DNA of 64,000 nucleotides, taken from contig JAAZOD010000010.1 of NCBI GenBank assembly GCA_012797975.1, positions 1-64,000 on the forward strand. The letters run 5' to 3'. Below are positions 47,736-58,699 of this stretch, piece by piece. Under the pieces are notes generated by a model. It searched no databases, was not told the DNA's origin, and saw only the letters and a list, made by a program, of their open reading frames with translations. Every line of letters starts with the position of its first letter. Within the stretch, counting starts at the first letter, position 1. Made by a program: the position numbers and the translations under genes. This stretch comes from Pelolinea sp. (GTDB lineage Bacteria > Chloroflexota > Anaerolineae > Anaerolineales > Anaerolineaceae).

Positions 47736-49970
47736 ATGAAAGCGATACCCTTCCTGCCAACCGGGGAAACCAATTTCCGTTACCCACTGAAACGATATCT
47801 TCCCTTCTATCATGCAGGGGTCATTTCCAACTGGCTGCAACAAAATTCAAAACCGAAAGGAAATGTGCTCGACCCCCTGGGTTCCAATCCCTGCTATGCA
47901 CTGGAAGCCGCTGAAGGTGGTTTTCGCGTCTTTCAAGCCCAGAAAAATCCCATCCTGCAGCTCATGACCCAGGTGCTTGCCAAAGGGTATAGCGAAAAAC
48001 AGTTCCAGAATGCCATCCGTTTGCTGCTGGATCAGGAATGGCACGGGGAAAAACTGGGAAACTACATTCAAAAAGCGTATCGCACCGAATGCAGGAATTG
48101 CGGGAAATCCGTCGATGCAGAAGGCTTTGTTTGGAAGAAGGACTCGAAAGAACCCGCCTCGGTCGTTATCCTGTGCCCATACTGCGGAGAAGGCGGCACT
48201 TACCCCACCAATGAAGCAGACATCGCCCACCTGCAGCAGCTTGGAAACACGGCCATCTACCATTTGCGGGCCTTGCAGCGCTGTCTGGTAGAAGGAATCG
48301 ATGTTCAGAAGAACCTGGAATATGCGTTGGCCTGTTATACACCGCGCGCCCTGCACCTGGTAGTCATTCTCTTCAACGCGCTGGACCAATTGATGATCCC
48401 AGCGGAAGAGCGCTCCATGATCTCGGCGGTATTGTTGGAGGTATTCGACCAGGCCACCTCGCTCTGGCATTGGCCAGCCCGTGATTTTCGACCGCAGCAG
48501 CTTGTGCTGCCCAGCAGTTATTTTGAGAAGAACATCTATCGCATCATCCCTCAAGCCATCCGGACCTGGACGGACTTCAAGAAAACCTGCGAAGTTGTAA
48601 ACTATCCGGTCATCCCTGACCAGCCGCGCAGCATCTGCCTTTTTGAAAGAAAAACAACCAACGCATTGGTTTCCATACAGACCGATCAACAGGGATTGCC
48701 GGTCTTCTGCAGCTTTCCCCGCCCCAACCAGGCGTTCTGGACCTTTTCCGCCATCTGGTCTGCCTGGCTGTTCGGCAAAAAAGCCGCCACAGGCATGCTT
48801 TCAACCCTTGCCCGCCAGCGTTACGGATGGTACTGGTTCGCCCAGGCGATCGCCACCAGTTTTTCCTCGGTCAAAAATGAGATCACGGAAAAGGATAGCG
48901 TCTTTGGAATTTGCACAGACTTCACTCCCTCTTACCTGCTGGCTATCCTTCTAGGGGCAAGCGATGCTGGTTTCACATTGACCGGCGGCGCTTTTCAGAG
49001 CAGCGCGAACGTCCTGCAACTGGTCTGGAAATACACGCAGGAAGAGGGCGAAGCGAAAACATCCGCCGAACTGGAAACGGCCCGACCATCGCTCATCCGT
49101 TACCTAGATGAGCGGGCCGAGCCAGCCACCTTTCGCGAGCTTTTCTCCGTTTACTGCACCTCCCCCGCCATCCACGCCGCCTCCCCCGTCACCTCCGAAG
49201 GGGAAACCTCAGACTATTACAATAAAGTGCTCAATGATCTGCACGGCGAACTGGGGAATACAGCGTTGTACCGTTCCATCACAGGATCGAACATCTCCTC
49301 CACCCGCTGGATGCTGGCAGACCGAAAAAATGAAAGCCAACCGCTGGATGACCGCATCGAACAGGAGATCGTGAATGCCATCCGTCAAAATGCCCAATTG
49401 AACTTTCGCGATCTGTATGCTCATCTCTGCCAGGTGTTCCCCGGCTTTCTCACCCCTGACCGCGAATACTGCAAAGCCTGTCTTGAATCGTATGCGACCC
49501 GCACCAATCTGGCACTGCAGGAATACGAGCGAGACGAGGATGAAGAGCCGGCAAAAAGGGCGCGGGAAGAAAAAGAGATCGGCGAGTGGATCGGCCAGAT
49601 CGGAAGAAAAATCGGGGTCACGGTCCAGTTCGACCAAGGAATTCGCTGGCTGGACGCAAAAGGGAAACCCCTCTATCGTTTCCACATATCCACCACAGCC
49701 ATCTTCTCTGAACTAATGCGCACCTTTGTTGGAAAAGATCAGGGTATGCCGGTGTTTGTTTTTCCAGCCAGCCGCTCCCGCCTGATCGTGCTGAAAAAAG
49801 GACGGAATCCATTCTTGAGCGAAACGATCGAGCAAGGAGGACATCTTGTCAAATTCCGCCACATCCGCAAGATAACAGAGCAGGAACAATTTACCTTGCA
49901 GGCCTGGCAGGACATCCTGGATGTTGACCCGCCCCTGTGGGACCCCCCTGCACAATTGAAATTCCTTTAA
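47736..49970 (+). CDS. Large protein with degenerate DNA-methyltransferase-like fold and zinc ribbon
   Basis: No family can be named with certainty. The N-terminus resembles an N4/N6-type DNA methyltransferase: VLDPLGSNPCYALEAAEGGF at residues 44-63 stands where VLDPFxGSGTT is expected, and QKNP (69-72) where DxNP is expected. Two CxxC pairs (C119/C122 and C147/C150) form a zinc ribbon. No DPPY/NPPY motif is seen, and the helical C-terminus has a winged-helix-like segment. It starts with GGAGG 11 bases upstream. It may be an inactive relative of the DUF1156-type methyltransferases that binds DNA or nucleotide. Confidence 0.6.
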   Translation: MKAIPFLPTGETNFRYPLKRYLPFYHAGVISNWLQQNSKPKGNVLDPLGSNPCYALEAAEGGFRVFQAQKNPILQLMTQVLAKGYSEKQFQNAIRLLLDQEWHGEKLGNYIQKAYRTECRNCGKSVDAEGFVWKKDSKEPASVVILCPYCGEGGTYPTNEADIAHLQQLGNTAIYHLRALQRCLVEGIDVQKNLEYALACYTPRALHLVVILFNALDQLMIPAEERSMISAVLLEVFDQATSLWHWPARDFRPQQLVLPSSYFEKNIYRIIPQAIRTWTDFKKTCEVVNYPVIPDQPRSICLFERKTTNALVSIQTDQQGLPVFCSFPRPNQAFWTFSAIWSAWLFGKKAATGMLSTLARQRYGWYWFAQAIATSFSSVKNEITEKDSVFGICTDFTPSYLLAILLGASDAGFTLTGGAFQSSANVLQLVWKYTQEEGEAKTSAELETARPSLIRYLDERAEPATFRELFSVYCTSPAIHAASPVTSEGETSDYYNKVLNDLHGELGNTALYRSITGSNISSTRWMLADRKNESQPLDDRIEQEIVNAIRQNAQLNFRDLYAHLCQVFPGFLTPDREYCKACLESYATRTNLALQEYERDEDEEPAKRAREEKEIGEWIGQIGRKIGVTVQFDQGIRWLDAKGKPLYRFHISTTAIFSELMRTFVGKDQGMPVFVFPASRSRLIVLKKGRNPFLSETIEQGGHLVKFRHIRKITEQEQFTLQAWQDILDVDPPLWDPPAQLKFL

Positions 49971-50015: not shown

Positions 50016-51749
50016 CTAAGAAATCACTTCCGCAATGAAAGGTATTTCCCGCTTCACAAAAACCTGGATTTCTTTGGGTGAACCAAGCTGCAGAGCGTTC
50101 TCTGCCAGTTTGACCAAGTCTTCTGCCGTTAAATTGCGGATGATCTGTTTCACCAGCGGGATGAAGGGTGGGCTCATGCTGAACTCGTCCAAACCAAGCC
50201 CGACCAGGATAGGAGCAGCCAGAGGTTCGCCTGCCAGCTCCCCGCACATGCCAACCCATTTATGTTCCGCATGGGCAGCATCGATGACCATCTTGATCAG
50301 CCGCAGAACGGCGGGGTGAAAGGCATCGGAAAGCTCCGCCACTTTTGGATTGGTTCGGTCAGCCGCCATGGTGTACTGGCTGAGATCATTGGTACCGATG
50401 GAGAAGAAATCTACTTCCTTTGCCAGCTGGTCTGCAATGACCGCCGCAGAGGGGATCTCGACCATGATGCCGATCTCCGCATCTTCCGCAAAAGGAATCC
50501 CTTCTTTTCTCATTTCATCCTTACACTCATTGACGACCTTCATGGCCTTGCGCACGCAGGAAACGGTTGCCACCATGGGGAACATGATCTTGAGATTATG
50601 CCCCACCCCGGCGCGTAAAGCAGCGCGCAGTTGCGGTTTGAAAATATCAGGGCGATTCAAGCACAGCCGCAAGGCGCGTTCACCCAGAAATGGGTTCATC
50701 TCTTTTTCCAGGTGCAGATACGGAATTTCCTTATCCCCACCCACATCCAGAGTGCGCAGTACCACCGGATGTTTGCCAAACACATCCATGATCGCTTGAT
50801 AGGCCTGGTACTGTTCTTCTTCGGTAGGGAGCGCATTTCGCTCGAGATACAAAAATTCAGTACGCAGCAGACCAACCCCCTCTGCGCCGTTTTCCACCGC
50901 AAATTTTGCATCTTCCACATTGCCGATATTGGCAACCACCTCAAATTCGATACCATCCTTGGTATGCGCTTTTGACTGAGCGAATTTCAACGCTTCGCTC
51001 TGAATCTTCTTGCTGGTTTCCATACGCTGATGGTATTGTTTTTCAATGGCTTCATCGGGTTCAATGATCACCACGCCATTACTTCCGTCCACCACCATGG
51101 TGGCTCCGGTCTTGACATCCATCACGTCCAGCCCAGCACCTGCCACAGCCGGCAGCCCGAGGCCGCGCGCCAGAATGGCAGTATGGGAAGTGGCTGAACC
51201 CCGTGCAATGCAAAAGCCCAATACCTTGCTCTTATCCAGCAAAACCGTATCGGATGGAGTCAGATCATCCGCCAGAATAATGGCCGGTTCTTTCAGGTCG
51301 GCGGTCGGTGAATCAGCCACGTTCATCAGGACGCGCACCACCCGGTTGGCAACATCCATGATATCGGTCGCGCGGGCGGCAAAATACTCGTCTTCCATGG
51401 CCGCCATGGTTGCAGCGAACTGCTCGGCGGTCTCCGAAACAGCACATTCGCTGTTGATCCTTTCACACTGGATACGATTTTTAATGGTGGAAATCAATTC
51501 CGGGTCATCCAGGATCATCTTGTGAGCCTGGAAAATCTCCGCATCGGCCTCACTGGCTTCCGTGAGCGCTTTTTGATAGATCAAATCGATTTGGGACTTG
51601 GCAGAAGCAAGAGCAGCATCCAGACGGGCTACTTCAGCATTCGGATCACTGATCTCTTTTTTTTCTGTGTCTAATTCTATACGGTGAAATTGAAAAGCTG
51701 GACCGATGCAAATTCCGCGGGAAGCTGCAACGCCATTCAGCTTTTTCAT
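50016..51749 (-). CDS. ptsI: Phosphoenolpyruvate-protein phosphotransferase (enzyme I)
   Basis: Enzyme I takes phosphate from PEP and passes it to HPr. The 577-residue protein has the phospho-His motif GSATSHTAILARG near residue 190 and a C-terminal PEP-binding barrel with LRTEFLYLERNALP, GERALRLCLNRPDIF and ending ELAGEPLA. Overlap of four bases with ptsH (ATGA) indicates a coupled pair. No EII sugar transporter is in the window, so the pair may serve regulation or a distant EII or DHA kinase. Confidence 0.96.
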   Translation of the reverse strand: MKKLNGVAASRGICIGPAFQFHRIELDTEKKEISDPNAEVARLDAALASAKSQIDLIYQKALTEASEADAEIFQAHKMILDDPELISTIKNRIQCERINSECAVSETAEQFAATMAAMEDEYFAARATDIMDVANRVVRVLMNVADSPTADLKEPAIILADDLTPSDTVLLDKSKVLGFCIARGSATSHTAILARGLGLPAVAGAGLDVMDVKTGATMVVDGSNGVVIIEPDEAIEKQYHQRMETSKKIQSEALKFAQSKAHTKDGIEFEVVANIGNVEDAKFAVENGAEGVGLLRTEFLYLERNALPTEEEQYQAYQAIMDVFGKHPVVLRTLDVGGDKEIPYLHLEKEMNPFLGERALRLCLNRPDIFKPQLRAALRAGVGHNLKIMFPMVATVSCVRKAMKVVNECKDEMRKEGIPFAEDAEIGIMVEIPSAAVIADQLAKEVDFFSIGTNDLSQYTMAADRTNPKVAELSDAFHPAVLRLIKMVIDAAHAEHKWVGMCGELAGEPLAAPILVGLGLDEFSMSPPFIPLVKQIIRNLTAEDLVKLAENALQLGSPKEIQVFVKREIPFIAEVIS

Positions 51750-52033
51750 GCTTCTTCTCCAAAATTTTTCTTCACCAGCTCCACCAGAGCGTCGGCCGCT
51801 TCACATTCATCCGCGCCTTCTGCCTTAATGGTAATTTCAATCCCTTGAAAAACGCCCAATGTCAAAATACCCAAGATGCTTTTGGCATTGGCAGTGCGTA
51901 ACTTGTTCTCTTTGGGGTCGATGCACGAAACATTGACCTCACTTTGGAATTTGGATGCAGTTTGTACAAAGAGTGCTGCGGGGCGAGCATGCAATCCAAC
52001 TTTGTTATTGACGACGACTTTGGCTTCCTTCAT
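51746..52033 (-). CDS. ptsH: HPr phosphocarrier protein
   Basis: HPr carries phosphate from enzyme I. The 95-residue protein has the active His15 in GLHARPAALF and a serine site (Ser52) in KSILGILTLG like the regulatory Ser46 of Gram-positive HPr. That suggests possible control by HPr kinase, which is not in the window. It is translationally coupled to ptsI. Confidence 0.95.
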   Translation of the reverse strand: MKEAKVVVNNKVGLHARPAALFVQTASKFQSEVNVSCIDPKENKLRTANAKSILGILTLGVFQGIEITIKAEGADECEAADALVELVKKNFGEEA

Positions 52034-52170: not shown

Positions 52171-55100
52171 TTATGTGCCCATAGTACTCGTTGGAGCTGC
52201 CGTTGAGGTCTCGGTCGGGGTGGGTGTCTCCGTTGGCATGGGCGTATCCGACGGCAACGGTGTTTCCGTTGGCGTATTTTCCGGCGTGGGAGTCTCTGTA
52301 AGAGTAGGGGTAAGCGTTGGTGTGAGCGTTGGTGTGAGGGTCGGGAGTGTGAAAGACAGGGTCACTTTCCTCTCCGCATAGCCGTTCATGTCATTCTCCA
52401 CATATAAACGCAATGTGATGGTCTTGCTGCCGAGTTCGTACAGGTCCAGGGTATAGATCACCGTCGCATCCGGGTAGGTCATCCTGCCATTTTCGATCAA
52501 CACTTTCCATGCTTTCGGATCGCTCCCCTCACCCATCATTAACTGGTAGCTTTCGAAATGAGAAGGAGCATCGAGAATGACCTTGATCTCCAGGGGGCTT
52601 TGGTTGAGGACCATGCCATTGTTCAGCCCCACAAACTCAAGAGTGGGCTGAGAATCTTTTTCAGAACATTTTTCGGAGGGGGTGAAGATAACCGGATCAG
52701 AGAAACCCATTTCCTCCGCCCATTCTTTCCCGGCGTCAGTGTCCGTGATCCATTTCTGCCCCCATTTATCGCTGATATTCAATGTCCATTTCTTTTCGTT
52801 GAACTCCGTACAGTAAAGGGAAGCTTCTTTGTTCGTCCAGGTATCCAGGTTCACTTTCTTCCACAAATCGTTTTCCGCAGAAAGCGGCAGTTGAGAACTG
52901 TTGAAGATCTCGCTTTTTTCATTGGGGCATTTTTCCGATGGTTTGGTGCCGCTGACAGCGCACACGATCTCGCTGACGATCCCTGCGGGCTGCGGCAAGT
53001 TGCTGGGTGTGCCCCCCTTATAATGCTGAACAGCATATTGAATAACATCCGCCCAAATGGGAGCTGCACCGGTAAGGCCGGTGGTATTCTGCATGGGCGT
53101 GTAATCGGCATTACCCACCCACACACCCACCGCAATATCGGGAGTGTATCCCAAGGTCCAGTTATCGCGAAAATCGTTGGTCGTCCCCGTTTTCACCGAC
53201 ACCTTGAAAGGCAGTTTCAGGATCGAGTTCGCACCGAAAGCCGGTGTACGGGCGGAGTTATCCGCCAATATATCACTAATCAAATAGGCATGTTCGGCGC
53301 TGATAACCTGTTCCGTTTTCGCGGAATGTTCATAAACGACATTCCCCGCATGATCCACAATCCTTGAAATGGCAAACGGCTCCGCCCTGACCCCTTGGTT
53401 GGCAAAAATGGCATACGCCGAAGTCAGCTCCAACAGCGAAACATCTCCCCCACCCAGAGTAAGCGCCAGACCATAGTCGTCACGGGTGAGGGTGGTAATA
53501 CCCATTCTCTTTGCAAAATTGACAAATCCATCGGCTTGGGGTGTATCCGGATCATCATAGATGCCCACAAACTGCAAGGTCTTTACAGCCGGAATATTAT
53601 AGGAACTGCCCAAAGCAGTGCGCACCAGCACGGGCCCGTGGTATTTTCCATCATAGTTCACCGGTATATAAGGATCGCGGGGATCATCTTCATTCCCGGA
53701 GGGGGGAAATTCGCTTTTGACATCCCAGATCAATGTGGAAGGAGTCCATCCTTTTTCAAACGCCGCGGCGTAGGTGAGCGGCTTGATGGAAGAACCGGGT
53801 TGGCGAGGAGAAACTGCCATATTGACCTGTCCGGCGATCGCTTCATTATTAAAGTCCGCCGAACCAACCATGGCAAGGACCTCCCCCGTTTGCGGCTGCA
53901 CGGCCACCAAGGCCCCATCGGAAGCATTATTCCCGGTCAGTTTTGCCACCTGTTCCTTCACCGCATTTTGGGCATACTTCTGCAGATCAGGGTCCAGCGT
54001 CGTGTATACACTGAAACCGGAGCGGTAGATGGTCTGTGCATCGAACTGATTCTCGAGCAAAGCGCGGATGTGGCTGACCCAATGCGGGAAGGGTATATTG
54101 ATCTGTTTTTGCTGAAACGGGTACCCTTCGATCTCCAGTACGGACGCAACCGCCTCATCCATGCTGACACAAACGGGCGCTGCGCTGTTGCTCACATCGA
54201 TACAGCCTTCTTCGGCGCTCAATTGATACATCAGGTTAAGAACATCCTGATGGCGCAGCAAAGCAGCTTGTTTGTTGGCAAAAACATCGTAGACGGCGGG
54301 CGCCTGGGGCAACCCAGCCAAGAAAGAGGCCTGGGCAAGGTTCAGTTGATCGGCTGAAGTGTTGAAATAGGTTTCGGCCGCTGCCTGGATACCGTAGGCC
54401 AGATTGCCGTAATAGATTTCATTTAAGTACAGTTCAAGGATCTCATCCTTGCTGTAGCGGCGGGTAATCTCGGCCGCCAGAATGATCTCCTTGGCTTTGC
54501 GTTGAACCGTTTGCTGATTGCGTTCTTCCGGTGATAACAGCAGCGTTCGCGCAAGCTGCTGGGTGATGGTGGACGCGCCGGAAACGATCTCCCCGGAGGT
54601 ATAGTTCTGCCACAGCGCGCGCACAATGCCAAAGAAATCGAAGCCGGGATTTCTGTAAAAATCCTTATCCTCCGTTGCAATGGTCGCAGCCACAATATAG
54701 GGCGACATATCTTCCAGAGAAACATAAGTGCGAAATCCGGCATTGGGGTCCAGGATCTCATAGATCATGTTCCCATTGCGATCATAGATGCGGGTGGTTT
54801 CAAATTGAGAAGCATTTGCCCTCAAGTCCTCCACGCTGGGCAACGTAGCTGCAATGGCATAATACTGCACCAGCAGAAAAACAGAAAAGCCAGCGAAAAT
54901 GATCAGCAGCCCCAGCAGCCCTCCAATGAGAGCTTTGGGAAAACAACCCTTTCCTTTTTCTTCCCGTGGCCGCTCTTTTTTTATTTTCCGTTTTTCTTTC
55001 CATCGGTTAAAACTGGCCTTCAAAAAAGACATACAGGAATGGATGCCCTTCTTGAAAGCATCCAATATTCTTTTAAAAGAATGTGTAGATTCTTTTCTTT

Positions 55101-55788
55101 TTACAGGAATGGGGCGTGTCCGCTCCTTGCGCGGAATCTGTTTGGTTGACTCCATGGAGGAGGAGCCCGGCGAGCTTGAAGACGGTTTGAGGTCAGCTAG
55201 ATCCTTTTTTTTTACTTCGCGGAATTCTTCCACGCTGTAAATCCCCACCTTCAACACCTTTTCTCTCCAAACATTGCCTGACGAGCCCATTTTCAAGCAC
55301 AGATGGGTCAAGAATTCCTGCGGGTCAGGGAGCTGTTCCCATACCTGCGGCAAAAAAGTGGCTTTCCGGTGATCATCCTGCAGCACCACCCCATCTTTGA
55401 ATGGCTGCAGCAAGCCGGGCAGGTCCATCGGATTTTGATAGGAGAGCGGCTGGGTGGGCGTCAGACGGGAGACCTCGATCTCCACTTCTTCCAATTCCGG
55501 TTCCGAGAGGGGAGAAAAACGATAATCCTCCAGCGCAGCAGCAATGGCATGCTCGCGCACATCTTTCGCCAACGGTTGGTACGCTTCCAGCGTCCCGATA
55601 CACCCGCGCAGCCGGCCGGCGATGGTCAATGTCACAAAGCTGGCTCCGTTCTCGCGCAACGCAGGGGTCAATGTATCAAGATCGATCTCCGGCAGCGGCA
55701 AGTTTCGAACCGCCGCTTCAATGGAAGTGCGAGCGATCTGCAGCAGAATCGTTCTTTCCGACTGGGTCAATTCAGGCTTTTTAATCAT
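52171..55788 (-). CDS. AMMECR1 domain fused to class A penicillin-binding protein
   Basis: The 1205-residue membrane protein starts with a cytoplasmic AMMECR1 domain (about 5-190; LRGCIG at 60-65, ATFLPQVWEQ near 143), a basic linker, and one membrane segment (about 284-310). Then come a GT51 glycosyltransferase (EDKDFY 373-378, GASTITQQ 404-411) and a transpeptidase (Ser666-Lys669, SYN 729-731, KTG 866-868), an Ig-like domain and a Pro/Thr-rich tail. All catalytic motifs are intact. ATG 55788 is preferred over 55821 because GAGG precedes it. Peptidoglycan synthesis is the clear role; that of AMMECR1 is unknown. Confidence 0.9.
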   Translation of the reverse strand: MIKKPELTQSERTILLQIARTSIEAAVRNLPLPEIDLDTLTPALRENGASFVTLTIAGRLRGCIGTLEAYQPLAKDVREHAIAAALEDYRFSPLSEPELEEVEIEVSRLTPTQPLSYQNPMDLPGLLQPFKDGVVLQDDHRKATFLPQVWEQLPDPQEFLTHLCLKMGSSGNVWREKVLKVGIYSVEEFREVKKKDLADLKPSSSSPGSSSMESTKQIPRKERTRPIPVKRKESTHSFKRILDAFKKGIHSCMSFLKASFNRWKEKRKIKKERPREEKGKGCFPKALIGGLLGLLIIFAGFSVFLLVQYYAIAATLPSVEDLRANASQFETTRIYDRNGNMIYEILDPNAGFRTYVSLEDMSPYIVAATIATEDKDFYRNPGFDFFGIVRALWQNYTSGEIVSGASTITQQLARTLLLSPEERNQQTVQRKAKEIILAAEITRRYSKDEILELYLNEIYYGNLAYGIQAAAETYFNTSADQLNLAQASFLAGLPQAPAVYDVFANKQAALLRHQDVLNLMYQLSAEEGCIDVSNSAAPVCVSMDEAVASVLEIEGYPFQQKQINIPFPHWVSHIRALLENQFDAQTIYRSGFSVYTTLDPDLQKYAQNAVKEQVAKLTGNNASDGALVAVQPQTGEVLAMVGSADFNNEAIAGQVNMAVSPRQPGSSIKPLTYAAAFEKGWTPSTLIWDVKSEFPPSGNEDDPRDPYIPVNYDGKYHGPVLVRTALGSSYNIPAVKTLQFVGIYDDPDTPQADGFVNFAKRMGITTLTRDDYGLALTLGGGDVSLLELTSAYAIFANQGVRAEPFAISRIVDHAGNVVYEHSAKTEQVISAEHAYLISDILADNSARTPAFGANSILKLPFKVSVKTGTTNDFRDNWTLGYTPDIAVGVWVGNADYTPMQNTTGLTGAAPIWADVIQYAVQHYKGGTPSNLPQPAGIVSEIVCAVSGTKPSEKCPNEKSEIFNSSQLPLSAENDLWKKVNLDTWTNKEASLYCTEFNEKKWTLNISDKWGQKWITDTDAGKEWAEEMGFSDPVIFTPSEKCSEKDSQPTLEFVGLNNGMVLNQSPLEIKVILDAPSHFESYQLMMGEGSDPKAWKVLIENGRMTYPDATVIYTLDLYELGSKTITLRLYVENDMNGYAERKVTLSFTLPTLTPTLTPTLTPTLTETPTPENTPTETPLPSDTPMPTETPTPTETSTAAPTSTMGT

Positions 55789-55875: not shown

Positions 55876-56628
55876 ATGCGAAAAGATCCTGAAGTGCAAT
55901 CGAGCTCTGAAAAAAAAGAAACCAGCTCTTCCTTCAATACGAGCCGGGTTCTGCAAACTATTGTATTGGTGGCGGCCGTGCTGGCCACCCTTTTCACTTT
56001 CTGGAATCCCTATAAACTGTTTTCTCAGCAAGAAGTGACCCAGGCCACCTATCCGGTCAACGCCGACGGAAGTTCTGCCGAATATTCCACCATTGGAATT
56101 CTGGTAGGGCACTGGAAAGTTGACAGCGGGAACATTTGCGAAAATGATATTGTGGAAGCCAATGTTACCGAAGCCATAGCCAATCAGGTCAGCGTAAAAT
56201 TGAACGCGCTCGGTTATCCTGTGAAACTGCTGGCTCAAACGGATCTGGATCTGGTCAATTTCCGCGGACCGCTGCTGATCGCCATCTTTACCGGCTCCTG
56301 CGAAGATACACCCGAAAATAAAAGCGGATTCAGCATCGGGACCACCCTATCCGCAACTGACCTGAATTCTTCCAATGCCCTGGCGGTGTGCATGGGCGAG
56401 GTTTATCAGGCGGCCACCAATCTGGATTTCAGTTATGAGATCATCGCTTCGGATCAGCCGGCGTACACCTATTTTCAAATGGTCAATCCGAACACTCCCA
56501 TGATCTATCTTGAAATGGGGTCTTTGCTGTATGACCAATCGGTTTTAATAGAAAATTCTGAAAAAGTAGCCAACGGCATTGTCAATGGCATTCAATGCTA
56601 TCTGGATACGCTGGAACCTGCCCAATGA
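55876..56628 (+). CDS. Membrane-anchored amidase-like protein with altered zinc site
   Basis: The 250-residue protein has one membrane segment (about 24-43) and an extracytoplasmic domain resembling N-acetylmuramoyl-L-alanine amidase (Amidase_3). Matches are LVGHWKVDSG with zinc His79, the Glu94 of the EANVTEAIA helix, and the late YLEMGSL with Glu213 as in catalytic VEVGFL. The third zinc ligand, usually in SIHAN, is Phe138 here (AIFTGSC). It is divergent from the penicillin-binding protein and overlaps the next transpeptidase gene by ATGA. Activity is uncertain. Confidence 0.65.
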   Translation: MRKDPEVQSSSEKKETSSSFNTSRVLQTIVLVAAVLATLFTFWNPYKLFSQQEVTQATYPVNADGSSAEYSTIGILVGHWKVDSGNICENDIVEANVTEAIANQVSVKLNALGYPVKLLAQTDLDLVNFRGPLLIAIFTGSCEDTPENKSGFSIGTTLSATDLNSSNALAVCMGEVYQAATNLDFSYEIIASDQPAYTYFQMVNPNTPMIYLEMGSLLYDQSVLIENSEKVANGIVNGIQCYLDTLEPAQ

Positions 56629-57638
56629 GTGAAATCACAAAACAAACCATTACTGTTATGCTTGAAAAAGCCCAAAGCGCTTTGAAAGCCGGGGATAAAA
56701 AAGAAGCGCGCGCCTGGGCACAGAAAGTTTTACACGCATCCGCAGACAATGTGGACGCGTACCTAATCCTGGCATCCATCAGCGCACCCAAGGAAAGTTT
56801 GAAATATCTGAAGCGCGTTTTGGAGCTGGATCCGAAAAACCAAAAAGCGCGCAGCGGAATGCGCTGGGTCGCCGAAAAATTAAAAGAGGAAGAAACACAA
56901 AAGAAGCAAAATTCTGCTCAAGAAGATACGCAAGCGATCAAAGTAAAAGCAGCGCAAAAACGACCCCAGAAAAAGAACGGCAGCCATTCCTCCATCTGGG
57001 GCATCCTGCTCTTTTCCGCCATCGTCCTGGCCGGTCTGGCAGCTTTCAGCTGGTATGGATTACCCATCCTGAATTCCACTTCCAAGGATATCAAGGATCC
57101 ACGCCCGGCGGGAGTGGTGGTCAAACCCACCCTCACACCCACCGCCACAGCCACCCCCACTCCCACATTGACCCCGACGGCCACATCCACCCCGCTGCCC
57201 ACCTCAACGCCCAAACCGACCGAAAAAACATACATGGACTATTTTGCCCATTCCTGGGATATCCCGGATGAGGTGAGCGGAAGTGATAAATTCTGGATCG
57301 AAGTGGATTTGAGCGAACAAATGGTATATACCTACCGTGGTGATACTTTCCTGCAGTCATTCCTGGTATCCACGGGGACCAGCGCACACCCCACAGTAAC
57401 CGGCACCTTCAAGATCTATGCCAAATATCCCGCCTATCTCATGGTTGGTGATGGGTATTACCTGCCCGATGTGCCTTATTCCATGTTCTTCTACAAGGGT
57501 TACAGTCTGCACGGCACCTACTGGCACAGCAATTTCGGCACCCCCATGAGCCATGGTTGTGTTAATATGAGAACAAGCGATGCCGAATGGGTATATGAAA
57601 ATGCCCCGATCGGCACCTATGTCTATGTCCATGATTGA
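56625..57638 (+). CDS. L,D-transpeptidase with membrane anchor and Pro/Thr linker
   Basis: The 337-residue protein has an N-terminal cytoplasmic TPR-like helical part (about 1-85, KAGDKKEARAWAQKVLHAS), one membrane segment (about 125-147), a Pro/Thr/Ala linker, and a C-terminal YkuD domain with catalytic His and Cys in MSHGCVNMRTS. It forms 3-3 or 1-3 peptide cross-links or attaches proteins to peptidoglycan. ATG 56625 overlaps the stop of the amidase-like gene. The next gene is a second YkuD enzyme. Confidence 0.9.
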   Translation: MSEITKQTITVMLEKAQSALKAGDKKEARAWAQKVLHASADNVDAYLILASISAPKESLKYLKRVLELDPKNQKARSGMRWVAEKLKEEETQKKQNSAQEDTQAIKVKAAQKRPQKKNGSHSSIWGILLFSAIVLAGLAAFSWYGLPILNSTSKDIKDPRPAGVVVKPTLTPTATATPTPTLTPTATSTPLPTSTPKPTEKTYMDYFAHSWDIPDEVSGSDKFWIEVDLSEQMVYTYRGDTFLQSFLVSTGTSAHPTVTGTFKIYAKYPAYLMVGDGYYLPDVPYSMFFYKGYSLHGTYWHSNFGTPMSHGCVNMRTSDAEWVYENAPIGTYVYVHD

Positions 57639-58699
57639 TGATGTACAGATACAGTATGAAAAAGAACATCAACAGAAGAGATTTCCTAAAGTATGCACTG
57701 CAAGGGGTATGTGGCGGATTCTTTCTCGTCAACTCTTTTCCAAAGCATGCCAGTTTTCTGGAAACCGATCCGGCTACCCCTCTGCTGGGAAGGGTCTTCA
57801 AAGATGATGCCATCCTCTATAAACAACCCTCTTTTTCTTCAGGCACGAAGTACATCCTGAAAGCGAACAATGTGCTTCCTTTGGCCGAAGAGGTGATCGG
57901 CGACCCCATCAATGAACACAGCAAATTGTGGTACGAGGTCACCGATTACGGCTACATCCCCGCCAACAGCATCCAGCCGGTACGGCAGCGCATCAATCCA
58001 CCCAAGACACAGATCAGCTCCAACGGCGAATTGGGGACCATCACGGTGCCTTATACCAAAGCCTGGCGTACAGACCTGACTTCCGTATCGGAAGATTTCC
58101 AGTACTTTTATTACGGGTCAACCCATTGGATCAGAGGAAACTACACCGATGCGAAGGGGAACATCTATTACAAAATCGTTGAAGATCGCTGGGGGGATAT
58201 TTATTATGTTCTGGCAGAACACATTGAGATCATCACAGAGGACGAGTTGAAGGCTTTTGCCAGCGCGGTACCGGCGGAAGAAAAGACCCTGGAGGTCAGC
58301 ATCGCCGACCAGGCGGTGATCGCCTACGAATATGGAAAAGCCGTTTTCTTTTCCCAGGCATCCACCGGCCTTTTCAACAACGAACTCGATTATTCCACAC
58401 CCCCGGGAAACTACCAGATCAATTACAAACGCCCCTCCCGCCACATGGTACACACCGATAAAAGTGGCGATGATGACAGCGAATTGTATGGAGTGCCCTG
58501 GGTAAGTTATTTTACCGATAGCGGCATTGCCTTTCACGGCACGTACTGGCATAACGATTTCGGCGTTCAGCACAGCCACGGCTGTGTGAACCTGCCCATA
58601 CCGGCTGCCAAATGGATCTATCTGTGGAGCCAACCGGTCGTCCCCTTCGGGCAGGAGAAGTATGTCACCAACAGCGGCACCAGGGTAAAAGTGATCTAA
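57638..58699 (+). CDS. L,D-transpeptidase with Tat-type signal
   Basis: The 353-residue protein begins with NRRDFLKYALQG, a twin-arginine-like signal, then a hydrophobic stretch. Two SH3-like segments may precede the YkuD domain; the domain ends QHSHGCVNLPIPAAKW with catalytic His and Cys. It overlaps the upstream gene by one base (TGATG), so the two are coupled. Tat export suggests that it folds in the cytoplasm first, which is unusual for YkuD enzymes. Confidence 0.88.
   Translation: MMYRYSMKKNINRRDFLKYALQGVCGGFFLVNSFPKHASFLETDPATPLLGRVFKDDAILYKQPSFSSGTKYILKANNVLPLAEEVIGDPINEHSKLWYEVTDYGYIPANSIQPVRQRINPPKTQISSNGELGTITVPYTKAWRTDLTSVSEDFQYFYYGSTHWIRGNYTDAKGNIYYKIVEDRWGDIYYVLAEHIEIITEDELKAFASAVPAEEKTLEVSIADQAVIAYEYGKAVFFSQASTGLFNNELDYSTPPGNYQINYKRPSRHMVHTDKSGDDDSELYGVPWVSYFTDSGIAFHGTYWHNDFGVQHSHGCVNLPIPAAKWIYLWSQPVVPFGQEKYVTNSGTRVKVI

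What the first reader, a model, noticed from the sequence alone, without database searches (positions are those of the whole stretch)
52171..55788. AMMECR1 domain fused to a class A penicillin-binding protein
One continuous reading frame joins a full AMMECR1 domain (LRGCIG, ATFLPQVWEQ) to a complete PBP1A with intact GT51 and transpeptidase motifs. AMMECR1 proteins are normally small and stand-alone, linked to Memo and radical-SAM partners, so this fusion puts a domain of unknown chemistry on the cytoplasmic side of a cell-wall polymerase. It might sense or control cell-wall synthesis.
Basis: partly seen in the sequence, partly recalled or inferred. Interest (0 to 1): 0.78.

Follow-up and report, generated by a model that had tools for sequence, protein, structure and literature searches.

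The report
AMMECR1 domain fused to wall synthase
In one genus of Chloroflexota bacteria, a small and ancient protein whose job is still unknown (AMMECR1) has become joined to an enzyme that builds the cell wall, which offers a handle on what AMMECR1 does.

Summary
The fusion is real. ORF 52171-55788 (-), 1205 aa, carries a complete AMMECR1 domain and an intact class A PBP in one frame. All five genus genomes held have the same open frame, despite a 37%-identical linker and in-frame indels. No full-length match appeared among 142 other family genomes. In class (396) and phylum (400) samples only the window's genome has one. The A9 run beside the joint is missing in three of the five, so the join is not a sequencing slip. 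The history is readable: outside the genus AMMECR1 lies within 15 kb of this PBP in 22 of 45 genomes. Five sister genomes have separate genes -4 to +11 nt apart, and the genus then lost the stop codon. The fused domain is the only AMMECR1 found in each genus genome. It keeps all 50 residues conserved in 30 unfused copies. I favour a retained ancestral activity, tethered by a disordered linker to the cytoplasmic face of the PBP. Control of wall synthesis by AMMECR1 is possible but untested. Its chemistry is unknown, so mechanism confidence is moderate.

The parts
52171..55788 (-). Fused ORF: AMMECR1 - linker - TM - GT51 - transpeptidase - C-terminal region - Thr/Pro-rich tail, 1205 aa
   Evidence: full length in 5 of 5 genus genomes
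55222..55743 (-). AMMECR1 domain (residues 16-189), LRGCIG at 60-65
   Evidence: PF01871 150.9 bits; TIGR04335 AmmeMemoSam_A 196.8 bits, cut-off 99; model pLDDT block means 88-98 over 11-190
55205..55213 (-). A9 homopolymer (coding strand) three codons after the AMMECR1 profile end
   Evidence: in G000 and G003 only. First stops after the run in the two other frames: 1 and 3 codons on in G000, 18 and 3 in G003
54940..55215 (-). Linker, residues 192-283: disordered 200-237, helix 238-270, basic stretch before the membrane
   Evidence: mean identity 0.37 among five genomes for residues 192-290; pLDDT <50 at 200-237 and 270-281
55153..55155 (-). Conserved internal ATG (M212 of 'MEST'), probably the former PBP start codon (inference)
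   Evidence: present in 5 of 5 fused genes; upstream anti-SD energy -2.5 here, -0.2 to -3.0 in the five; random 20-mer median -2.7
55102..55125 (-). Conserved linker motif ERTRPIPV (residues 222-229; DETQPIPV, EETQPLPV, EETKPVPV, EETKPIPI in the other four), candidate Ser/Thr-kinase site
   Evidence: kinase site is inference
54844..54939 (-). Transmembrane helix, residues 284-315
   Evidence: helix in model; N-side charge +6, C-side -1
54229..54771 (-). GT51 glycosyltransferase domain (340-520)
   Evidence: PF00912 199.7 bits
53041..53916 (-). Transpeptidase domain (625-916)
   Evidence: PF00905 87.2 bits; SSIK, SYN, KTGT
51746..52033 (-). HPr-like gene downstream (named from its GLHARPA motif, recalled; no family search run)
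   Evidence: ORF
50016..51749 (-). PTS enzyme I-type gene downstream
   Evidence: PF02896 400.7 bits
55876..56628 (+). Divergent amidase_3-like gene; a similar gene flanks AMMECR1 in unfused relatives
   Evidence: PF01520 28.3 bits, cut-off 27; synteny by eye
56595..58699 (+). Two L,D-transpeptidase (YkuD) genes
   Evidence: PF03734 85.6 and 68.1 bits

Best explanation
A genus-specific gene fusion. Shown by sequence: AMMECR1 and this class A PBP gene are neighbours in many genomes of the order; in the window's genus and its two nearest sister genera the genes between them are gone and the two abut; in the genus the AMMECR1 stop codon is lost, giving one frame of about 1200 codons that has stayed open. 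Inferred: this happened once for each step; the product is one membrane protein; AMMECR1 keeps its ancestral, still unknown, activity in the cytoplasm and hangs by a ~90-residue, partly disordered linker from the transmembrane helix of the PBP. The main effect is to fix AMMECR1's amount and location (membrane, sites of wall synthesis) to those of the PBP, rather than to turn AMMECR1 into a new allosteric switch.
For: Full-length frame in 5 of 5 genus genomes. Junctions of 20, 34, 30, 29 and 38 codons without a stop, all length changes in frame. AMMECR1 dN/dS 0.08 and 0.09 in the 2 of 10 pairs with finite dS (0.81 and 2.77; the other 8 saturated); linker identity 0.37. Five sister genomes with separate genes at gaps 8, 2, 5, 11 and -4 nt. 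FastTree support 1.00 for the fused clade and for fused + abutting. Linkage <15 kb in 22 of 45 non-genus genomes, 21 of 22 on the same strand. One AMMECR1 place per genus genome. All 50 residues at least 95% conserved in 30 unfused copies are kept in 5 of 5 fused, with no fused-specific fixed residue. P0001 finds one place per genus genome and more in most others (there the separate AMMECR1 counts as one), so this may be the only class A PBP. Disordered stretch and cytoplasmic topology from model and charge.
Against: No transcript or protein data. The conserved internal ATG (MEST) could still start a free PBP, and G001 has a further in-frame ATG207 with a strong upstream site (-8.1). AMMECR1 differs 1.61-2.05 times as much as the PBP core between fused pairs, more than most of the 12 closest unfused pairs (1.24-1.79), though ratios may rise in less diverged pairs. 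Part of the linker (MEST..QI..ETQPIPV) is conserved, so it may do more than tether. The flavin-reductase neighbour and the linked cyclic-di-AMP receptor genes are not found in the fused genus, so the ancestral pathway may itself have changed. About half of non-genus genomes do not show the linkage.
Confidence: 0.55

Rival explanations
1. AMMECR1 is a cytoplasmic sensor or regulator in cis: it binds a ligand or partner and alters PBP polymerase activity through the transmembrane helix, as MacP is thought to do for pneumococcal PBP2a.
For: Fusion to what may be the only class A PBP; linkage with this PBP in 22 of 45 non-genus genomes; window genes around it include an amidase-like gene and two L,D-transpeptidases. 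Precedent: a mainly cytoplasmic, kinase-regulated activator proposed to act at the TM-polymerase interface (PMC10746261, passages). Conserved linker block with candidate phospho-sites; kinase-family matches in 5 of 5 genus genomes.
Against: A disordered stretch in the linker is poor for allostery. No AMMECR1 residue changed consistently after fusion. Fusion is found in one genus only and follows from prior adjacency, so proximity explains the partner.
Confidence: 0.2
2. Functionally neutral fusion: the stop codon was lost, but the two parts work independently, through internal initiation at M212, proteolysis of the linker, or simply without interaction.
For: The unfused sister pairs abut or overlap; M212 is conserved in 5 of 5; the linker is divergent and partly disordered.
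Against: Upstream of M212 anti-SD energies are at random level (-0.2 to -3.0; random median -2.7), though the separate PBP genes of sister genomes are not uniformly strong either (-1.3 to -6.4). The frame stayed open and in phase across five diverged genomes, which a neutral join need not do.
Confidence: 0.23
3. Assembly or sequencing artefact at the A9 run, joining two adjacent genes.
For: The A9 run sits beside the end of the AMMECR1 domain; in G000 the other frames stop 1 and 3 codons after it.
Against: Five assemblies agree, and three have no such run at the joint.
Confidence: 0.01

Closest known systems
AmmeMemoRadiSam system protein A (TIGR04335) / AMMECR1 family (PF01871)
   Same: Full-length domain over both cut-offs, LRGCIG and ATFLPQVW, fold of 1zq7/1wsc/1vaj
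   Different: Fused to a class A PBP and membrane-tethered; Memo and a radical-SAM homologue are in the genome but on other contigs
Memo-AMMECR1 two-domain proteins of other Anaerolineae
   Same: AMMECR1 joined to another protein, probably membrane-associated
   Different: AMMECR1 is C-terminal and the partner is Memo (4 of 4 checked); 22 of 23 long frames carry a lipoprotein-type signal, which predicts the other side of the membrane
Class A penicillin-binding proteins (PBP1A-like)
   Same: One TM helix, GT51 and transpeptidase with intact motifs
   Different: A folded ~190-residue cytoplasmic domain added before the tail; just under the PBP_1a_fam cut-off
MacP-PBP2a of Streptococcus pneumoniae (PMC10746261, passages)
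   Same: Cytoplasmic module acting with a class A PBP; kinase input
   Different: MacP is a separate protein; relatedness to AMMECR1 was not tested, and no regulatory role is shown here

Membership tests
AMMECR1 (PF01871) | Profile match over curated cut-off, full domain | tested here: met
   150.9 bits, cut-off 25, positions 1-168 of 168
AMMECR1 (PF01871) | Residues conserved in unfused relatives retained | tested here: met
   50 of 50 columns kept in 5 of 5 fused
AmmeMemoRadiSam system | Protein A profile TIGR04335 | tested here: met
   196.8 bits, cut-off 99
AmmeMemoRadiSam system | Memo and radical-SAM partners present in the genome | tested here: inconclusive
   Memo at G000:C32 (180 bits, cut-off 27). 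The radical-SAM match at C1 is over the cut-off (289, cut-off 220) but may be a paralogue, since those beside Memo in G041 and G054 score 624 and 644
AmmeMemoRadiSam system | The three genes clustered | tested here: not met
   Contigs C26, C32 and C1; the genome is in 35 contigs, and AMMECR1 lies over 50 kb inside a 150-kb contig
Class A PBP | GT51 plus transpeptidase in one membrane protein, motifs intact | tested here: met
PBP_1a_fam (TIGR02074) | Score over curated cut-off | tested here: inconclusive
   508.2 against 508.75, just missed
Class A PBP | Glycan polymerase and transpeptidase activity | not testable with these tools
   needs purified protein and lipid II

The most novel reading that the evidence does not exclude
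AMMECR1 in Anaerolineae is an envelope-biogenesis factor: its linkage to a class A PBP across the order, its place beside amidase-like and L,D-transpeptidase genes, its predicted export as a Memo-AMMECR1 lipoprotein in other families, and its fusion to what may be the sole class A PBP here all reflect one function on a wall or lipid-linked substrate, and the fusion channels or gates that substrate at the synthase.
Probability: 0.17. Interest if true: 0.82.

Novelty: new variant of a known kind. Interest (0 to 1): 0.55.

Why it matters
[quoted passage not shown] The three distinct solved sequences found by sequence search are called hypothetical proteins. A fusion kept under selection in a genus is a 'Rosetta stone' clue, and here the partner is one of the best-assayed kinds of bacterial enzyme. 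If AMMECR1 acts on or near the envelope, that becomes testable by swapping or deleting the domain and measuring PBP activity, wall composition and localisation. If not, the case is a clean example of how neighbour genes fuse: linkage, deletion, abutment, stop loss.

Tried and rejected
Artefact at the A9 run: rejected. Slippage at A9 making free AMMECR1: possible in G000 and G003, but the run is missing in the other three, so it is not a shared mechanism. Wider spread of the fusion: searched 147 family genomes and samples of 396 (class) and 400 (phylum); full-length matches only in the genus. These searches score 2-4 candidates per genome and print the best rows (down to E about 4e-70, 2e-203 and 1e-151); a full-length fusion would rank above that, but one split over contigs would be missed. 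One search prints only the best rows, so it cannot by itself exclude other long AMMECR1 frames. Two rows that ran past AMMECR1 with stops inside (G028, G086) were checked and are stand-alone AMMECR1 genes not next to a PBP.

Function from fold: Foldseek gives only AMMECR1 chains (1zq7, 1wsc, 1vaj) at E <= 0.001. Literature: the listings (40 of 162 shown; 20 of 4,090) show no paper on an AMMECR1-PBP fusion. One listed paper holds both AMMECR1 and peptidoglycan (PMC7772410); its AMMECR1 passage speaks of a phosphomevalonate decarboxylase, a claim I did not test. The library is open-licence only. A Memo-AMMECR1 paper recalled as Burroughs 2019 is not held. Relaxed selection on the fused domain: not supported, with a mild rate excess.

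The first tail scan caught 17 tails because its anchor was too strict; one search replaced it with 41. Motif patterns were chosen after seeing sequences and tails are related, so shuffles overstate the evidence. The first lipoprotein pattern gave 15 of 23; a broader one, set after seeing the sequences, gave 22 of 23, against 16 of 306 other ORFs and 0 of 39 AMMECR1 N-termini without Memo. The IQ-TREE step failed; only FastTree support is used.
Full report
OBSERVATION. The minus-strand frame 52171-55788 encodes 1205 residues without a stop. Pfam finds AMMECR1 (16-189), Transgly (340-520) and Transpeptidase (625-916), each far over cut-off. NCBIfam gives AmmeMemoSam_A 196.8 bits (cut-off 99) and PBP_1a_fam 508.2 (cut-off 508.75, just missed). 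GT51 and transpeptidase motifs are intact.

NOT AN ARTEFACT. Three codons after the AMMECR1 profile ends lies an A9 run (55205-55213). In G000 the other two frames stop 1 and 3 codons after it, in G003 18 and 3, so an indel there could join or part two genes. But the five genus genomes held (G000-G004) all have a full-length match with no stop; G001-G004 are 73-81% identical to the window. Only G000 and G003 have the run; the others are joined in frame without it. By equal contig length, G003, G002 and G001 are the public records DHHD01000096 (Anaerolineaceae bacterium UBA4781), JAAZNC010000006 and JAAZOK010000156 (identity by length is my inference). From the last AMMECR1 codons to the conserved MEST the junction is 20, 34, 30, 29 and 38 codons, without a stop. 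AMMECR1 synonymous sites are saturated in 8 of 10 pairs, linker identity averages 0.37, and gaps keep the frame.

SPREAD. In 147 family genomes, full-length matches occur in the 5 of the genus and in no other; in the other printed rows the PBP match begins at query residue 192 or later, and AMMECR1 matches are separate. In samples of 396 (class) and 400 (phylum) genomes only G000, the sole genus member sampled, is full length. A gene split over contigs would be missed. AMMECR1 occurs in 51 of 61 relatives, with one place in each of the five genus genomes; of the printed matches only those five have open frames over 1000 aa.

ORIGIN. In the nine unfused regions read first, a common order is: amidase-like gene (divergent), flavin reductase, AMMECR1, oppositely oriented genes (DUF4013, cyclic-di-AMP receptor family, an MGH1-like glycosidase), then the PBP, with variations (families on one example each). 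Of 50 genomes tabulated (one of 51, with a fragmented AMMECR1 match, was left out), 27 have AMMECR1 and the best PBP match within 15 kb; outside the genus 22 of 45, 21 of 22 on the same strand; 2 are far apart, and 21 are on different contigs or lack a PBP match, some perhaps through fragmented assemblies. A PBP-core tree puts the fused genomes in one clade (1.00) and fused plus abutting in one clade (1.00); order among the abutting ones is unresolved (0.10). A relative of the flavin reductase is found in 23 of 41 genomes and in 0 of 5 of the genus. The cyclic-di-AMP receptor family has no match in G000 and G003 and one weaker match (50-53 bits) each in G001, G002 and G004, away from AMMECR1. 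So: linkage, loss of the block, abutment, stop loss.

WHAT THE FUSED DOMAIN IS. Fifty alignment columns are at least 95% conserved among 30 unfused AMMECR1s; all 50 are unchanged in the 5 fused, and no residue is fixed in the fused and absent elsewhere. dN/dS is 0.08 and 0.09 in the two pairs with finite dS (0.81, 2.77). Between fused genomes AMMECR1 differs 1.61-2.05 times as much as the PBP core; the 12 closest unfused pairs give 1.24-1.79, so a mild acceleration cannot be excluded. The domain matches three distinct solved sequences, all called hypothetical (same entries by fold). A model of residues 1-345 from 8 sequences has a confident AMMECR1 fold, a disordered stretch (200-237), a helix (238-270) and a TM helix (284-315); charges place the N-terminus inside.

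TRANSLATION. Upstream of MEST anti-SD energies are -2.5, -0.8, -0.2, -3.0 and -2.0, near the random median of -2.7; four of the five AMMECR1 starts are stronger than that (-3.9 to -9.3, the fifth -2.4). This is weak evidence: of 48 other starts in the region half are weaker than about -4.4, sister PBP starts range from -1.3 to -6.4, and G001 has one in-frame ATG with -8.1.

MECHANISM. Shown: gene structure, conservation, history. Inferred: one polypeptide, cytoplasmic AMMECR1, PBP domains outside. Since the domain is the only AMMECR1 found in each genus genome and is unaltered at conserved sites, the simplest reading is that its ancestral activity continues, now at the membrane and in fixed ratio to a PBP. 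A regulatory role is a real rival: in the pneumococcal MacP-PBP2a case a mainly cytoplasmic, kinase-regulated partner is proposed to act at the TM-polymerase interface (PMC10746261, passages).

LINKER MOTIF. The block MEST-x-x-I...ETQPIPV is conserved in the linker of all five, with ERTRPIPV in G000. In 41 distinct PBP tails, five of them fused linkers, TQ occurs 88 times against a shuffle mean of 32.9 (max 48 of 500); [DES]TQ.[IVLM] is in 17 of 41 tails against 1.0 (max 5). Of seven control dipeptides QT (44, mean 33, max 45), SQ (53, mean 40, max 60) and TP (104, mean 91, max 116) ran high but within the shuffles; ST, TN, NQ and TE were near or below expectation. M. tuberculosis PknA-dependent sites favour acidic -1, Pro +2 and hydrophobic +3 (PMC7164672, passages), which DETQPI and EETQPL fit. 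Kinase-family matches occur in 5 of 5 genus genomes. That these are phospho-sites is inference.

WIDER AMMECR1. Memo is present in 55 of 61 relatives and the radical-SAM profile in 53 of 61 (50 over cut-off), but in G000 both lie on other contigs than AMMECR1. In other families of the class long AMMECR1 frames are Memo-AMMECR1 (4 of 4 checked by Pfam). I fetched 26 such loci, picked from the printed rows; 23 gave a frame with AMMECR1 far from the start (L143, L147 and L164 did not). A simple lipoprotein-signal pattern matches 22 of 23 (a stricter first version 15 of 23), against 16 of 306 other ORFs and 0 of 39 AMMECR1 N-termini without Memo. This predicts extracytoplasmic Memo-AMMECR1. Together with the PBP linkage it motivates, but does not show, an envelope role.

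Noticed in passing
L142, L144-L146, L148-L163, L165-L167 (long AMMECR1 frames in other Anaerolineae): Memo-AMMECR1-type proteins carry N-terminal lipoprotein-type signals in 22 of 23 frames, against 16 of 306 control ORFs; Memo was confirmed by Pfam in the 4 checked. This predicts export of the domain pair.
   Followed up: partly
Cytoplasmic tails of class A PBPs, loci L001-L121; window 55102-55125: TQ-type motifs are enriched in otherwise divergent PBP tails (88 against a shuffle mean of 32.9): candidate Ser/Thr-kinase or FHA sites.
   Followed up: partly
L080:687-1753, L088, L093 and others: A flavin-reductase-like gene sits directly upstream of AMMECR1 in many Anaerolineales, a partner other than Memo or radical SAM. 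It was not found in the fused genus.
   Followed up: partly
window 55205-55213: A9 run beside the joint in G000 and G003 only; slippage there could release free AMMECR1 (other frames stop 1 and 3 codons on in G000, 18 and 3 in G003).
   Followed up: partly
window 47736-49970: 744-aa protein with no Pfam match; similar-looking proteins lie near the PBP in several other family genomes (by eye).
   Followed up: no
L080:2490-2876, L084:7593-8218: Cyclic-di-AMP receptor family genes (often in pairs) between AMMECR1 and the PBP in the unfused arrangement, not at that place in the fused genus.
   Followed up: partly
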